Below, in pieces: positions 7,045-27,380 of a stretch of 64,000 nt of DNA (positions within the stretch are counted from its first letter, which is position 1; each line of letters begins with the position of its first letter). A program made the position numbers and the translations under genes. Origin of the DNA: Heliopora coerulea. Lineage: Eukaryota > Cnidaria > Anthozoa > Scleralcyonacea > Helioporidae. The notes below the pieces were generated by a model that saw nothing but the letters and a program-made list of their open reading frames with translations, was not told the origin of the DNA and ran no database searches. The stretch lies in the NCBI GenBank assembly GCA_030142905.1, contig JASJOG010000207.1, forward strand, positions 62,001 through 126,000. Direction: 5' to 3'.

Positions 7045-7469
7045 GTAGCTTAGCAATATTTCGAATGATACAGTCGAACCTGTATTAAGCGGCATCGTAT
7101 TAAGCGGTCACCCTTTATTAAGTGGTCACTTGGCAAAGTCCCGAAAATTTCATAACTTAAATACTGTTAAAGTAACCTTTATTAAACGGTCACCTCTATT
7201 AGGCGGACGCGGTCACCCTTGGTGCTGTCCCAAAGCTGATATTTCATTGTTTTGAACCTGTATTAAACGGACATCAAAAAATGCTTTGTTTAAAGATAAA
7301 ATTGAATTTGACTGTTTACCATAGTCTTGATTAACGTAACAGCTCAACAGTCTTAACACTTCATCACTTCCGTTACTAATAATGGACGATCTCCAATTTG
7401 TTTGCCTGGAAAATCAAAACAAGCACGTCACCACTTGATGATATAATATTGTCAACCTATAAAGTCGTT

Positions 7470-7952
7470 TTATTCAAGTACTTTGAACTTTTCTTTTGTC
7501 AACTTTTTCTTTAACCAATCGCACGAAAATGTATTTCCATTAAACTGGTACTCACAGGCCACTTCTAAACCATAACCACCGCCACTATTAGCACGCTTTC
7601 CTTTGACGATTACTTCGCTAGAATTTGTTGGACGTTTGAGAAATTTTGTAAGCCACAGTGCCATAAGTTTTGGGACATGTCCAAGCATTTCAGCTTGAGA
7701 TATACCATCGCTAACCCTTGCAGAATTGGTGTTGTCTGGGTCCTCTATATTTCTTTGAATGGCTACACGTCTACTTTTTGCTCCTTGATCTTGCTCCGCT
7801 TGTCTTCTTATGATTGCAACGGCATTTGAATAATTTTTGTTGCTTGGTTCCCGCTCAAGTGAATACTTGTCACCGATTGTTGGCTCCCAGTCATTCATAT
7901 ACGCATGACATCCCCTAATAAATGAACTCACTCTGAGTTTTTCCGTAGTCAT
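7470..7952 (-). CDS. HIRAN-like accessory protein carried by the Tigger element
   Basis: A 160-codon open frame starts at ATG (MTTEKLRVSSFIRGCHAYMN); the frame is open to about 7978 but without an earlier ATG. It shows features of a HIRAN domain: an N-terminal strand (FIRGCHAY), LEREPSNKNYSNAVAI (compare L.R.P.N.YDKNAI in HLTF/Rad5), EMLGHVPKLMALWLTKFL (the G-H/Y-hP turn and helix), then GGGYGLEVACEYQFNG and WLKKKL. A polar insert of about 40 residues separates the second and third blocks. HIRAN domains bind 3' ends of single-stranded DNA in HLTF/Rad5. The frame is intact, reads outward toward the left terminus and stops about 400 bp from it. A homologue lies in a different Tigger family at 28623-28766. 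The HIRAN call rests on motif reading only. Confidence 0.65.
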   Translation of the reverse strand: MTTEKLRVSSFIRGCHAYMNDWEPTIGDKYSLEREPSNKNYSNAVAIIRRQAEQDQGAKSRRVAIQRNIEDPDNTNSARVSDGISQAEMLGHVPKLMALWLTKFLKRPTNSSEVIVKGKRANSGGGYGLEVACEYQFNGNTFSCDWLKKKLTKEKFKVLE

Positions 7953-7979
7953 TTTGTTTAACTTCACTCTTGTCTCTAA

Positions 7980-9342
7980 CTATGGGACTGGTATTCAATG
8001 TGTAGAAACTCGAACATACCCGTTTCAGGACCAATGCTCCAGGAAGAAGTGGTTTTGATCGCTGAAAAGTTAGGGATTGTCGGGTTTGTAGCATCCAACG
8101 GCTGGTTGGACTCCTTCAAGAAACAACACTGGATTTGCAATATGTCAGTGGCTGGAGAAGAAGCAGATGTGACGGGTGAAACTGTTGAAAGTTGGCATGA
8201 AAGAGCAAGAGAGATTACAAGAAGATGGAAACCTGAAAACATTTGGAACATGGACGAAACTGGAGCCTTTTGGCACGGATTGCCTGAGAAGACCCTGAGT
8301 GGAAAAGGGAAACGATGCAGCGGTGGTAAGAAGGCAAAGCAACGGAATACTTGGGCTTTCTTTGTGAATGCTGCGGGAAAAAAAAGATCCCATCATCATC
8401 AGAAAATATGCCAGTCCCAGGTGTTTTAAGAATTTAAAAGATGTCAAATGCCCGTATAAGTGTCAGTATTTTTCAAACCCAAAAGCTTGGATGAACTCTG
8501 AAATTTTGAACTCGATTTTGTCGAAGTTAAACCAGCGCTTGCTCAGAGGGAAGAAAAACATCCTTTTGTTCATGGACAACGCACCATGTCACCCACCATG
8601 TCTTGAAGGAATGTTTTCCAGTATCAAAGTAGCGTTTTTGCCAAAAAACACAACATCTAAAACTCAGCCACTAGACGCTGGAATCATCGCTAACTGGAAA
8701 GTAAAGTACAAGAAACGTCTCCTCCGATATGTGTGTTCCAAAGGAAATGAGTCGACTAATGCGTCAGAAATAGTTAAGTCTATAAATATTCTAATGGCCT
8801 GGGGAAGAGACGCATGGAACGAAGTATCTAGCAGCACAACAAAAAAATGCTTTCAGACCACGGGAATGTGTCCACAAGATCCAGTCTTGGAAGACGATCC
8901 TTTCGAGGGAGAAGAGCTTCATGATCTGCAAAATCTTAGAGACAGATTTGAAACACCATGTACAGTGGATGAATTTATCGCGGCCGAAGATGAAATTGAA
9001 ATTTGTTCTGGTTTAATTGACAGCTCGAATCCTAACTGGAGGGATGACGTGCGTCAGGATCTACTTCGTGGCGACGAAGGAGGCGAACTCTCCATCGCAG
9101 CAGAACACGAACCGGCAGCAGAGGAAGAGAATGCTGAATATGATCTGGATGCTAAGCAACCGTCTATTAAAACAGTGAGAGAGACTATAAAATTCGGAGA
9201 TGCACTTCGAGATTTTGCCCAATATAATGGACATCAAGAACTCGCATTAGCCATTTCCAGGGTGAATGACTTGCTGAGCCAAATTAAACTTAGCAGGCCG
9301 CAGCAACAAACACAAATCAATGACTACTTTTCTGCGGTCTAG
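7980..9342 (+). pseudogene. Tigger transposase (CENP-B-type HTH plus DDD catalytic domain), frameshifted
   Basis: The frame opens at 7980 (LWDWYSMCRNSNIPVSGPML), inside the CENP-B-like DNA-binding domain; the first ATG is 7998. SNGWLDSFKKQH completes that domain. Catalytic positions are NMDETGAFW, LLFMDNAPCH and KTQPLDAGIIANWK, with 32 residues between the second and third Asp. The acidic tail ends QTQINDYFSAV. An A8 run at 8378-8385 shifts the frame (before: …WAFFVNAAG; after: DPIIIRKYASPR), so one extra A inactivates an otherwise open gene. The N-terminal psq-type HTH (about 90 residues) is missing; the HIRAN-like gene begins only 28 bp upstream on the other strand. Confidence 0.85.
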
Positions 9343-9714
9343 CTCTGTCTGAACATTTTCTCTGCCAATTTTGTTAAATTTACATTGGGGTTACAAATAC
9401 TGTTCAATTGTTCCCTTCATTTTACTTTAAAAACTTAAAAAATACAAAATACATGACTTATGACAACGTTTTCAACTTTTTGATAATTGATTTATTAATA
9501 TACGTTAAACTTTTAATGACGGATAAGCCGTGGGGTGATTTTTGTGTTGGACCTGCGTTAAACGGTCACCCTGTATTAAGCGGTCGCTGGCTCAATCCCC
9601 AAAGGTGACCGCTTAATACAGGCTCGACTGTATTTCTGTTTCTTCGGTACGTGCGTTAAATGGCGATTACCTATTCTTCTTCTTAGACTGGCTAATAGTT
9701 GTTTTTTTCACTTC

Positions 9715-10690
9715 GTGTCACTTTGCTTCATTTTACATCAATTCACTTTCACTTCACTTTCACTTTACTTCACTTTACTTCACTTCACTTTACTTCACTT
9801 TCCTTTACTTCACTTTCTTGCACTTTACTTAACTTTACTTCACTTAACTTTACTTCACTTCACTTTCACTTTACTTAACTTTACTTCACTTCACTTTCAC
9901 TTCACTTTCACTTCACTTCACCTCATTTCACTTTACTTCACTTCACTTCACTTTACTTTACTTAACTTCATCTCACTTCACTTTACGTTGCTTTACTTCA
10001 CTTCACTTTACTTTACTTAACTTCATCTCACTTCACTTTACTTTGCTTTACTTCACTTCACTTCACTTGACCTCACTTTACTTCACTTCACTTCACTTCA
10101 CTTTATTTCACCTCACCTCACTTTACTGTATTCACTTTACTTCATTTCACTTCACTTTCACTTCACTTTACTTCACTTCACCTCACTTCACTTTACTTCA
10201 CTTTCACTTCACTTTCACTTCGCTTTACCTCACTTTACTTCACTTCACTTTACTTCACTTCACTTTACTTCACTTCACTTTACTTCACTTCACTTTACTT
10301 CACTTCACTTTACTTCACTTCACTTTACTTCACCTCATTTCACTTTACTTCACTTCACTTCACTTTACTTCACTTCCCCTCACTTCACTTTACTTCACCT
10401 CACTTTACATTCACTTCACTTCACCTCACTTCACTTCACTTCACATTACCTCACTTTACCTCACTTCCTTTCACTTTACTTTCTTTTATTCATTTCACTT
10501 CACCTCACCCCTCCGCAGTTCACTTTCCGTTACCTTAAGTCACGTCACTTCATCTTCACCTTTACCTTCACTGCACTTTACCTCACCTCACTTCACTTCA
10601 CACCTTTTCATTTTTTATATGTTTCACTTCATTTCATATGATTTCACTTTACTTCAACCTCATTTGACTTCAAAGTTCACTTTACCTTAG
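9715..10690. repeat. CTTCACTTTA satellite
   Basis: Almost 1 kb is built of the words TTCACTTTAC, CTTCACTTCA and CCTCACTT. Translation gives only periodic FTLLHFTSL peptides. It sits between the Tigger element and a DZANK1 exon. The polypyrimidine run ends at the acceptor AG of that exon (10715-10716). Confidence 0.85.
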
Positions 10691-22452: not shown

Positions 22453-23863
22453 ATGGCTATAAAACTTCTTCGATCTCTCATGCCGTTTTTGCTGGCGATA
22501 GCAGCCTTTGGTATGCCGTTAAAAACCAACCAGGTAGTAGAATCGTTTGCTAAGCTAATAATTCTGAAACTATTATGTGCAATTCCATTGTCTGCATATT
22601 AAAGTGCATTTGAAATAAAAGTTAGATTTCTGTGTCGCACAACCTTCGCCTATTTGTGTGGCGCTTGTTCGTGAATTCAGTAGATTCCACTAGGGACTGT
22701 ATCTATCTTTTATTTCACTCTCTCCGTACGCTTCCTTCTGACTTCTCTTCACCTTACGAATACTTTACAATCTGCTTCGACGCTATCCAAAGGACAAGTG
22801 CCAAGCCCAGTCTTTAGGGTCAAGGTCCAGGTTGGCTTACAATGGTTCCTTGTTGTCCAGTATAATGACTAGTTGTTTACAACAGGTTCTCTGTTACTAA
22901 TTTAATTAAAACTATTCTGCCACAGTTTTTTTTATTCCAAAGAGCTTTAAGATTACTAAAAAAATGGCGTTTATGCTCTTTCCTAACCCGTATGGGCAAA
23001 TATGTGACTAATTCTGGATAGACCTTATCATGGTCAGAGCGAAGCGTGTGTGGTAACTCGACTAACTTGTTCCATGTACTTCGATTGACTACCACACATG
23101 ATGAATGTCGTGTATCGTTTCTGCTAACAGTTGCCATTACTTTTTCACTATGTTACAGACGTCCGATGAAGTATGTTCACCTAAAAATTCCGTACAAACG
23201 CCGAAAGGATTTACTCCACTAAGCTGTTTGGACTACTCAAAGAGAGGCTACAAGTCGTGTGGTTATTATCAGATCTACGACTCACAAGGACGCAAATTTG
23301 CCGCCTACTGCGATATGAATTCGGAACCAGGAGCAGTGTGGACCTTAGTCATATCCTTTGCCCTAAAAAATAAAAAAGTTAACCAGTTCCGCCAACCTCT
23401 ACAAAACAACGCTCCAGTGAACCCTAACTCGCCTTCCTGGAACCTCTATCGAATGTCTCACTCTCAACTGACCCATCTTAAGTCCCAGTCCACGCACTGG
23501 AGAGCAACATGCAGCTTCCCAACTCATGGCATTGATTACACTGATTATGTCAGAGTTAAATTTACAGAATTTGACGTGATGAACTTTAAGGGAGATGGTA
23601 TTTGTAAGAAAGCAGAATATGTCAACATTCGTGGTCATCAGTGCGCTGAATGTACAGCCAGATGGTCGCAATATGTCAGGGGATTTCCTCCACAAATAGA
23701 TAGCTTTTTTGTTGATGCAGGTTGTGAACTAGATGCGACACAAGGAGCTGTTGGTGGAGGTGGTGAAGATAACTTCGGCGGGTATTATGACATCAACAAA
23801 AATTTCCGTTGCACATCTGACGGTAGCTCGACAACCAACTGGTGGTTTGGTGGTTATCTGTAG
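22453..23863 (+). CDS. Secreted fibrinogen-related (FReD/intelectin-like N-terminal) protein, two exons
   Basis: Exon 1 (22453-22533) encodes a signal peptide: MAIKLLRSLMPFLLAIAAFG then MPLKTNQ, ending at donor CAG|GTAGTA. Exon 2 starts after acceptor TTACAG at 23159; both borders are phase 0. The predicted protein is about 261 residues. Mature features: SCLDYSKRGYKSCGYYQIYD, then FAAYCDMNSEPGAVWTLV, the fibrinogen-type opening with C...G.Y.I....G....YCDM...WTL; then many Cys and GGGGEDNFGGYYDINKNFRC near the end. The C-terminal half is not a classical fibrinogen fold. Such lectin-like proteins are secreted and often immune or adhesive; that is family inference. The gene has a TATA box and a poly(A) signal, no lesions, and lies within a DZANK1 intron on the same strand. 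Confidence 0.8.
22534..23158 (+). other. Intron of the fibrinogen-related gene
   Basis: GT at 22534 and AG at 23157-23158 with a pyrimidine-rich tract (TTACTTTTTCACTATGTTACAG region). Phase 0. No other feature was seen in it. Confidence 0.7.
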
Positions 23864-25941: not shown

Positions 25942-27380
25942 CTATTGGCTGCTCGCACGTTTGACTTTGTGAATTAGTCGTTTGTAAGGTCCCGGTAATT
26001 GTTGTGATCGGTTTAATGGATTTTGTTCTAAGTTCGTATACCAGCTTTCTAGTGTGAGTCGCTGTTTGTAGTTGCTGCTGTACGTAATGCATTTTGCCGA
26101 ATCCCAGTCAATGTTGTGTTTGGTTTGTCGGTGGTGTTCGGCAATGTGGTTGGTTTTGTCTCCGTTTTTTGTCGCTCGTTTGTGTTCTGTTAGTCGTATA
26201 TTTAAGTTTCTGCTAGTCTCACCTATATAAGTGGCTTGGCAGTCGGAGCAATTAATTTTGTAAATTGCACCTTGTCTTTCGTGCGGTTGTTCTCTGTCCT
26301 TAACGTTAGTCAGTACATGTCGTAAAGTTGTGATGGGTTTGTGCGCTACTCGTATGTTGTATGGTTGTAAGATACGCGAGATAATCTCAGACGTACCTTT
26401 TATGTAGGGTATCGTTGCTGTAGTTGTTGTCGGACTGTTGTTTTTGTCGCGTTCATTGTCTTTGTAAGTGTTAAGTTTGATGAAGTCAGAGTTATAGTTG
26501 TTTTTGTGGAAAACGCATTGTAGGTAGTCATTTTCTTGGCGTAGAGCGTCGGGTGAGTTACAAATGAGTTGTGCGCGTCTCGTCAATGTTTTGATGGTGG
26601 TAGCTTTGTGTGAGGTTGGATTGTACGACGATTGGTCAAGTAGTCTGTCAGTATGCGTTGGTTTCCTGTAGACAGTGGTCTGTAGTTTGTTATTGTCACG
26701 ACTTACCAAACAGTCAAGGAACGGAATAGCTCCGTCTTCTTCAATCTCTTTGGTAAATTGTATGTGACTGTTCTGTTCGTTAATGTGTTTGTGAAACTCG
26801 TCAATCTCGTCTTCGGGTAGTGCAGTAATCGTGTCGTCAACGTAACGAAACCAAAAAGGTAACGTGTGTTTGTAAGTTGCAAGAGCTCGTTCCTCTATGG
26901 ATTGCATTACAATTTCAGCAACCACAACAGAAACGGGTGAGCCCATTGCCGTGCCATGTAACTGTTTGTAGTGTTTACCGTTGTATTGAAAGTAAGTTGA
27001 TGTGAGACAAAGTTCCAGTAGTTCCACGATGTCCCCTGTAGGTAAAGGAAGTGCGTCAGTAAATTCGTTGATGGCAGTTTTGGTGCATTCTAGCGCCAGT
27101 TGAAGCGGAATACTGGTAAACAGTGATTTCACGTCAAAAGACACTAGCTTGTGGTTGTGTGGTATTTGTACTGTTTTGAGATTGTTGATGAAGTTTTCAG
27201 TCGATCGTAGTCTATGTTGTGACTTGTTGGTTAGTGGTTGCAGTATAGTTGTTAAGTATTTGGAAAGTTCGTAAGTAGGCGACCCACAGAACGAAACTAT
27301 AGGTCGCATGGGTATTTGTGGCTTGTGAAGTTTCGGTAGTCCGTACAGCTTTGGTGATCGCGGTACCGAACACCTGAGTC
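25942..27380 (-). CDS. Penelope-like RT plus GIY-YIG protein, 5' truncated
   Basis: From a truncated start (RLRCSVPRSPKLYGLPKLHK) the frame is open for about 475 codons. RT motifs are: IPMRPIVSFCGSPTYELSKY, KLVSFDVKSLFTSIPL, HGTAMGSPVSVVVAEI and FWFRYVDDT (catalytic DD), then IPFLDCLVSR. The GIY-YIG domain has YKINCSDCQATYIGETSRNL and RLTEHKRATKNG, preceded by a linker with HVLTNVKD. The end is LIHKVKRASSQ. There are no stops inside, so this is the best-preserved retroelement protein in the window. It lacks only the N-terminal region. Confidence 0.9.

What the first reader, a model, noticed from the sequence alone, without database searches (positions are those of the whole stretch)
7470..7952. 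A Tigger transposon carries an intact HIRAN-like gene divergent from its transposase
Seen: an open 160-codon frame on the strand opposite the transposase, inside exact inverted termini and TA duplication, with LEREPSNKNYSNAVAI, EMLGHVPK and GLEVACEYQFNG blocks. Known: HIRAN domains (HLTF/Rad5) bind 3' single-stranded DNA ends and serve repair. Inference: the element may encode a protein that recognises ends or gaps left by transposition and steers their repair. Pogo/Tigger elements are usually described with transposase only.
Basis: partly seen in the sequence, partly recalled or inferred. Interest (0 to 1): 0.88.

Follow-up and report, generated by a model that had tools for sequence, protein, structure and literature searches.

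The report
Two-gene Tigger transposons carrying a HIRAN
In a genome that is likely a coral's, a group of Tigger 'cut-and-paste' transposons carries a second gene for a small HIRAN-domain protein, set back to back with the transposase and kept under selection over deep divergence, so the protein likely helps the element handle DNA ends, gaps or replication forks when it moves; the copy in the window is itself a damaged one.

Summary
Confirmed and widened. Window 7470-7952 (-) is an open 160-codon frame matching HIRAN (PF08797, E 6.7e-8) inside a 2,560-bp Tigger element (7071-9630; TA duplication; termini alike at 21 of 22 bases). It is not a one-off: in the 430-Mb host assembly, 82 of 134 listed transposase loci have a HIRAN frame within 6 kb, back to back (about 0.5 expected by chance). 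Four 3.45-kb copies at different sites are 98% alike; one (L027) has an open 644-aa transposase and an open 150-aa HIRAN. Deep HIRAN lineages show purifying selection (omega 0.25), and HIRAN and transposase distances track each other (r 0.81). Against it being obligatory: one transposase subfamily lacks the gene and some copies have truncated ones. The window copy is decayed: transposase truncated and frame-shifted, about 750 bp including the intergenic region gone. Most transposase tails carry a PCNA-binding-like motif. Seven literature searches pairing HIRAN with transposon terms showed no such element, though one was too broad to read through.

The parts
7069..7070 (.). TA, left target-site duplication
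   Evidence: sequence; TA/TA
7071..7092 (+). left terminal inverted repeat CAGTCGAACCTGTATTAAGCGG
   Evidence: 21 of 22 bases agree with the right end
7097..7273 (+). left subterminal copies of the TTAAGCGGTCACC-like motif (7097-7115, 7176-7195, 7254-7273), possible transposase binding sites (inferred)
   Evidence: inverted repeats I3, I4, I7
7470..7952 (-). HIRAN gene, 160 aa, open but with changes at near-invariant residues
7980..7981 (.). deletion junction: about 753 bp present in L010 (intergenic region plus transposase N-terminus) are missing here
   Evidence: blastn of the window element against L010
7998..8429 (+). transposase, first frame: truncated HTH_Tnp_Tc5 (profile 15-62 of 66)
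8368..9342 (+). transposase, second frame: DDE_1 domain, 324 aa
9307..9330 (+). C-terminal PCNA-binding-like (PIP) motif QTQINDYF of the transposase
9570..9585 (+). right subterminal copy of the terminal motif
   Evidence: inverted repeat I10
9609..9630 (-). right terminal inverted repeat
9631..9632 (.). TA, right target-site duplication
   Evidence: sequence

Best explanation
A group of Tigger/pogo transposons in this genome carries two back-to-back genes, a transposase and a small HIRAN-domain protein that has been kept under purifying selection, and the HIRAN protein likely serves as an accessory transposition factor that would bind single-stranded or gapped DNA, and perhaps PCNA, where the element is cut out or inserted. 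Shown: the two-gene layout between TIRs with TA duplications, its recurrence, selection on HIRAN, co-divergence with the transposase, and a PIP-like motif at the end of most transposase tails examined. Inferred: that both proteins meet at PCNA-loaded DNA (ends, gaps or forks) and that HIRAN raises the yield of transposition or repair there. The window copy is a decayed relic with a broken transposase.
For: HIRAN match above Pfam's cut-off, and 42 of 43 alignment rows match. 82 of 134 merged transposase loci have a HIRAN frame within 6 kb back to back, 1 on the same strand, 51 none listed (about 0.5 expected by chance for the first lists). 18 of 20 loci fetched by HIRAN alone have transposase sequence, each in divergent orientation (one of them, L009, is the window's own insertion in duplicate). 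Four 3.45-kb elements at different sites are 98% identical; L027 has both genes open. HIRAN omega 0.249, lnL -5862.3 against -6048.7 at omega 1 (38 open frames); median dN/dS falls from 0.74 at dS below 0.05 to 0.22 at dS 1-2. HIRAN and transposase distances correlate, r 0.81, 0 of 2000 permutations as high (20 elements). PIP-like C-terminus in 17 of 21 transposase tails. [quoted passage not shown] HIRAN domains of HLTF and Rad5 bind ssDNA, Rad5's also PCNA (PMC7804152, passages).
Against: No structure or assay. The family profile meets HLTF's HIRAN only at E = 1, and a tyrosine of HLTF's pocket is not a tyrosine here. One transposase subfamily has no HIRAN gene (TIR 384 bp before its ATG, two loci) yet keeps the PIP-like motif in 5 of 5 tails fetched, so HIRAN is not needed by every member and the PIP motif does not depend on it. 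Some copies of a HIRAN-bearing subfamily have truncated HIRANs. 84 of 167 HIRAN loci have no transposase row in the capped lists, and 4 of 10 loci fetched showed none with the window's queries. L013 is out of step (HIRAN 0.46 but transposase 0.19 from the window). The window copy can hardly make a working transposase.
Confidence: 0.5

Rival explanations
1. Regulator: the HIRAN protein acts at the shared intergenic region or on the transposase itself to set the level of transposition, like regulators encoded back to back with their target gene.
For: The start codons lie 116 bp (L056) and 396 bp (L027) apart and the genes point away from each other, so they may share a promoter region.
Against: HIRAN is described as an ssDNA- or PCNA-binding domain in the passages seen (PMC7804152 and PMC4666394), not as a sequence-specific repressor. 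No binding motif was tested.
Confidence: 0.2
2. Host evasion: the HIRAN protein is a decoy that occupies ssDNA or PCNA and keeps the host's HLTF/Rad5-type repair or fork remodelling away from the element.
For: Same Pfam domain as in the host-type proteins HLTF and Rad5 (passages); the element's protein is about 150 aa and has no other Pfam domain.
Against: No interaction data; whether this genome has HLTF could not be checked, because the PF08797 search did not complete (13 tries).
Confidence: 0.15
3. Passenger: a host HIRAN fragment was captured by one element and hitch-hikes without use.
For: One subfamily does without it; close copies evolve almost neutrally (median dN/dS 0.74 at dS below 0.05); the window copy decays.
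Against: Omega 0.25 over the tree, absence of that signal in four of five other frames, nine or so lineages co-diverging with the transposase, and HIRAN frames still open in 1.7-kb derivatives that have lost most of the transposase (L015, L018, L022).
Confidence: 0.07
4. Not a gene: an open frame antisense to something else, or a chance HIRAN likeness.
For: One antisense frame also shows a lowered ratio (0.50 and 0.33).
Against: Pfam score above cut-off, 99 relatives at E 0.001 or better, lowest dN/dS in the coding frame.
Confidence: 0.01

Closest known systems
Tigger elements of the pogo superfamily (Tc1/mariner group)
   Same: HTH_Tnp_Tc5 and DDE_1 transposase, CAGT-type TIRs of about 22 bp, TA duplication, PIP-like C-terminus; 32 residues between the presumed second and third catalytic D (counted by eye on the window sequence).
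   Different: Most complete Tiggers are described with a single ORF (PMC9219625, passages) and pogo elements with one or two ORFs encoding transposases (PMC7386202, passages). Here a second, divergent HIRAN gene is present, and the transposase has an N-terminal Cys-rich block.
HIRAN domain of HLTF and Rad5
   Same: Same Pfam family (PF08797); EPxNxxDxNA and GHVPK blocks in the family alignment.
   Different: Protein of about 150 aa with no SNF2 or RING match; a family-specific block GKRVNRGGGYGLEIPCEY; a pocket tyrosine of HLTF is not conserved (weak alignment).
TnsE of Tn7
   Same: Proposed likeness only: an accessory protein of a transposon that reads DNA structure and works with the sliding clamp (PMC5371812, passages on TnsE).
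   Different: No sequence relation is claimed or tested; here the clamp motif lies on the transposase, not on the accessory protein; eukaryotic.
Two-gene DNA transposons such as PIF/Harbinger (transposase plus MYB-like protein; recalled, from no call)
   Same: Transposase plus a separate helper gene in one cut-and-paste element.
   Different: The helper is a different domain (HIRAN) and the superfamily is different.

Membership tests
Tigger/pogo transposon | pogo-type transposase (Tc5/CENP-B-like HTH plus DDE_1) | tested here: met
   Window: HTH_Tnp_Tc5 E 7e-9, DDE_1 E 6.4e-26. L027: HTH_Tnp_Tc5 1.7e-19, DDE_1 3.5e-34; CENP-B_N is below its cut-off (E 0.016). Several named relatives are 'tigger transposable element-derived protein 6-like'.
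Tigger/pogo transposon | TA target-site duplication and short TIRs | tested here: met
   Both ends were sought in 31 loci. 15 pairs are tabulated, 14 with TA on both sides (L017: TA/TC); L057 gives one more TA/TA pair; the rest gave no clear pair. The search demanded TA, so TA is partly by construction; one search's search did not, and 7 of the 8 pairs used from it alone or re-found by it outside one search's list (L010, L017, L024, L026, L027, L028, L056, L058) have TA on both sides.
Tigger/pogo transposon | transposase clade within Tigger by phylogeny | not tested
   Only a tree inside this genome was built; no reference Tigger set was added.
HIRAN (PF08797) | profile match above the curated cut-off | tested here: met
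   Window 32.7 bits against 24.7; L027 HIRAN 30.9 bits; 42 of 43 A1 rows at E 0.01 or better.
HIRAN (PF08797) | HIRAN fold (beta barrel) by structure | not testable with these tools
HLTF-type HIRAN with a 3'-OH pocket | tyrosines 72 and 93 bordering the pocket | tested here: inconclusive
   The NNPYD tyrosine (Y93, numbering recalled) falls on a lysine of the family profile in a weak alignment (E = 1); Y72 is not covered by that alignment.
PCNA-interacting transposase | PIP-box motif near the C-terminus | tested here: met
   17 of 21 tails found in 31 loci (4 without: L010, L021, L023, L026), 5 of 5 tails of the HIRAN-less subfamily, and 57 of 95 database relatives of 480 aa or more among the 120 listed, against 0.17% of shuffled tails. 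The pattern is a little wider than the canonical one. Motif only; binding not testable.
TnsE-like targeting factor | binding to recessed 3' ends and the clamp, with insertion bias to forks | not testable with these tools
   No binding or replication-direction data.

The most novel reading that the evidence does not exclude
These Tiggers are a eukaryotic counterpart of Tn7's TnsE route: the HIRAN protein reads single-stranded or 3'-ended DNA at replication forks, the transposase docks on PCNA through its PIP box, and together they steer insertion into replicating DNA.
Probability: 0.2. Interest if true: 0.9.

Novelty: new variant of a known kind. Interest (0 to 1): 0.76.

Why it matters
Tigger elements are described as one-gene transposons (PMC9219625, passages). 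A stable second gene from the HLTF/Rad5 domain family, kept under selection over deep divergence, suggests that these elements bring their own protein for dealing with DNA ends, gaps or forks. The meaning of the PCNA-binding motif in pogo/Tigger transposases is called unclear in a review (PMC5371812, passages); a partner gene from a PCNA- and fork-related family makes that old question testable, because 3.45-kb copies that look young exist and natural HIRAN-less relatives offer a comparison.

Tried and rejected
Rejected: the frame as a chance or antisense artefact. In one search the coding frame gave median dN/dS 0.28 and 0.21 at nucleotide distance 0.15-0.32 and 0.32-0.40; four of the five other frames gave 0.81 to 1.71 there, and one antisense frame gave 0.50 and 0.33, which weakens that control. 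Among closer pairs the coding frame (0.72, 0.62) does not stand out from the others (0.44 to 0.96). 486 deep pairs were saturated in the coding frame and left out.

Rejected after a check: that the window copy and L009 are two insertions of one deletion derivative. They share flanks at about 95% over several kb, so they are one insertion, duplicated or seen in two haplotypes.

Led nowhere: viral contigs and genome-contig scans for the family, phage tblastn, PDB search with the single sequence. The genome search for all HIRAN domains (PF08797), meant to compare with the host's HLTF, did not complete. Same-contig evidence from other species: HIRAN relative P0003 and transposase relative P0112 both list a longest contig of 100,096 bases, and P0066 and P0180 both 2,948; by my rough estimate the first is unlikely by chance and the second could be; adjacency could not be seen.

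Seven paired HIRAN with a transposon-related or coral term: HIRAN+transposon (1,678 papers, 20 seen, swamped by the word as a name), 'HIRAN domain'+transposase (4), HIRAN+pogo (0), HIRAN+Tigger (0), 'HIRAN domain'+'transposable element' (4), HIRAN+Repbase (0), 'HIRAN domain'+coral (1). Titles and abstract starts of the listed papers pointed to none on such an element; of them only PMC2292703 was looked into (passages). The other three searches were on pogo and PCNA, HLTF, and pogo structure.

Rows dropped: three short HIRAN frames (L050, L052, L053) before the omega run (38 of 41 kept). My notebook says 18 of 22 tails carry the PIP motif; a recount gives 17 of 21. The fetched loci were chosen mostly for open HIRAN frames, so the lower stop rate of HIRAN than of transposase (0.68 against 3.44 per 1000 codons) is biased and not used.

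Full report
What is in the window. The element runs from 7071 to 9630 (2,560 bp) between TA dinucleotides at 7069-7070 and 9631-9632. Its ends read CAGTCGAACCTGTATTAAGCGG and agree at 21 of 22 bases; copies of the TTAAGCGGTCACC motif recur inside both ends. On the minus strand, 7470-7952 is an open frame of 160 codons whose only Pfam match at E 1 or better is HIRAN, 32.7 bits against a cut-off of 24.7. On the plus strand lie two transposase frames: 7998-8429 (HTH_Tnp_Tc5, first part missing) and 8368-9342 (DDE_1). The frame changes between them and the N-terminus is absent.

The window copy is decayed. Against L010, a 3,230-bp relative at another site, the window element lacks about 753 bp at 7980/7981. 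That removes the intergenic region and the transposase N-terminus and leaves about 28 bp before the HIRAN ATG. The window HIRAN departs from the family at nine columns that are at least 80% conserved. Five of these (C15, Y41, A121, S123, A132) also differ from L010; three (Y41, S123, A132) are conserved in 40 of 42 other rows. L009, which shares the deletion, also shares flanks with the window at about 95% and is the same insertion in duplicate.

The gene belongs to the element. The host assembly G000 has 429.8 Mb in 769 contigs. Searching it with the window HIRAN gave 151 matches, only 150 of 1,815 candidates being scored. A second search with the L027 HIRAN added 18 rows. Transposase searches gave 124 and 104 rows. 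Merged by hand-copied coordinates there are 167 HIRAN loci and 134 transposase loci, fragments included. 82 transposase loci have a HIRAN within 6 kb in divergent orientation, 1 on the same strand, 51 none listed; of the HIRAN loci, 83 have a divergent transposase and 84 none listed. Chance would give about 0.5 neighbours for the first lists. Because the lists are capped, 'none listed' is an upper bound on absence. I fetched the upstream side of 6 of the 51: two have a broken HIRAN that the lists missed (L061, L064), one has its first 39 codons (L062), one has other sequence there (L063), and two (L059, L060, one subfamily) have no HIRAN, with a TIR 384 bp before the transposase ATG. Of 20 loci fetched by HIRAN alone, 18 contain transposase sequence, each divergent, L009 being the window's duplicate; of 10 more, 6 do with the window's queries.

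Whole elements. L024, L026, L027 and L028 are 3,451 to 3,463 bp long, 98% identical, with TA on both sides and no shared flanks. L027 has an open 644-aa transposase (N-terminal Cys-rich block, HTH_Tnp_Tc5, DDE_1) and an open 150-aa HIRAN, their start codons 396 bp apart. This looks like a recently mobile two-gene element (inferred). L015, L018 and L022 are 1.7-kb derivatives at different sites in which only the last part of the transposase was found while HIRAN is still open; L057 looks like a similar derivative of another lineage. The terminal pattern of two of the lineages occurs 136 times in the genome, its reversed control never.

Selection. For 38 open HIRAN frames (of 41 distinct; three short ones dropped) and 148 codons, a codon model gives omega 0.249, lnL -5862.3; fixing omega at 1 and kappa at 2 on the same tree gives -6048.7. 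Median pairwise dN/dS is 0.74 at dS below 0.05 (63 pairs), 0.55 at 0.05-0.2 (14), 0.57 at 0.2-0.5 (1), 0.29 at 0.5-1 (17) and 0.22 at 1-2 (49); 550 pairs had dS above 2. Pairs are not independent. This is the usual mark of a gene selected while the element moves and left to drift in each copy afterwards. In the deeper bins the other reading frames give 0.81 to 1.71, except one antisense frame at 0.50 and 0.33; among close pairs the coding frame does not stand out. On alignments anchored to L027, which include broken copies, omega is 0.32 for HIRAN (31 rows) and 0.20 for the transposase (20 rows).

Common history. In 20 elements with both genes, window and L009 both counted, HIRAN and transposase distances correlate with r 0.81; 0 of 2,000 permutations reach it. 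By eye the HIRAN tree has about nine lineages; those with two or more rows reappear in the transposase tree, while deeper branching differs. L013 is an exception, with a degraded HIRAN (four stops). The HIRAN-less subfamily falls among HIRAN-bearing ones in an unrooted tree of 24 rows whose bootstrap had not settled, so loss is the simpler reading, but the root is not known.

How it may work. HIRAN domains of HLTF and Rad5 bind single-stranded DNA; HLTF's prefers a free 3'-OH, Rad5's does not and also binds PCNA (PMC7804152, passages; PMC4666394, one passage on the pocket). The family profile matches HLTF only at E = 1, and a pocket tyrosine (Y93, numbering recalled) meets a lysine, so an HLTF-type 3'-end reader is not supported; ssDNA or PCNA binding stays open. 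The transposase ends in a PIP-like motif in 17 of 21 tails, in 5 of 5 tails of the HIRAN-less subfamily, and in 57 of 95 long database relatives among the 120 listed, against 0.17% of shuffled tails. The pogo transposase was found as a PCNA interactor by yeast two-hybrid, and the review calls the role of such motifs unclear (PMC5371812, passages). I therefore infer an accessory factor that works with the transposase on gapped, single-stranded or PCNA-loaded DNA. The bold form is a likeness to TnsE of Tn7, which binds recessed 3' ends and the clamp and directs insertion to forks (PMC5371812, passages). None of this is tested.

Known or new. Reviews describe most complete Tiggers with a single ORF (PMC9219625, passages) and pogo elements with one or two ORFs encoding transposases (PMC7386202, passages). 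Seven searches of open-licence PMC papers for HIRAN with transposon, transposase, pogo, Tigger, transposable element, Repbase or coral showed none on a HIRAN-bearing transposon; the first gave 1,678 papers of which 20 were seen. Subscription papers and Repbase itself were not searched. An older paper suggests that eukaryotic HIRAN may have come from restriction systems or other mobile elements of bacteria (PMC2292703, passages). Relatives of the small HIRAN protein exist elsewhere (99). Named relatives of the transposase come mostly from cnidarians (Montipora, Stylophora, Actinostola, Hydractinia; one crinoid, Anneissia) among the 120 listed of 1,328, which is why I call the host a likely coral or near kin.

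Noticed in passing
L059 and L060 (upstream of transposases C579:1030218 and C27:773794): A Tigger subfamily without HIRAN but with the same kind of TIR and a C-terminal PIP-like motif: a natural comparison for HIRAN's role.
   Followed up: partly
L015:3660-5385, L018:3599-5303, L022:3826-5506: 1.7-kb derivatives with only the transposase tail found, yet an open HIRAN frame, at three different sites.
   Followed up: partly
L027:2205-4139 (-), first 60 codons: Cys-rich N-terminal block in the transposase, without a Pfam zinc-finger match; a similar spacing occurs in 21 of 25 listed relatives of 585 aa or more.
   Followed up: partly
L010, L024, L028: Three of the 20 first-fetched loci show inverted repeats outside the Tigger termini, as if the element sat inside another inverted-repeat element; in L028 one outer pair is itself Tigger-like (3704 and 8235).
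   Followed up: no
L013: HIRAN and transposase distances disagree (0.46 against 0.19 from the window); degraded HIRAN or recombination.
   Followed up: no
window 9707-10601: 895-bp array of a degenerate TTCAC pentamer (177 copies) about 75 bp right of the element.
   Followed up: no
window 25942-27309 (-): Open 455-aa frame with reverse transcriptase (RVT_1, E 2.9e-9) and a GIY-YIG match just below its cut-off, as in Penelope-like elements (the element name is recalled).
   Followed up: no
window 23105-23863 (+): 252-aa frame with a weak Fibrinogen_C match, below the cut-off.
   Followed up: no
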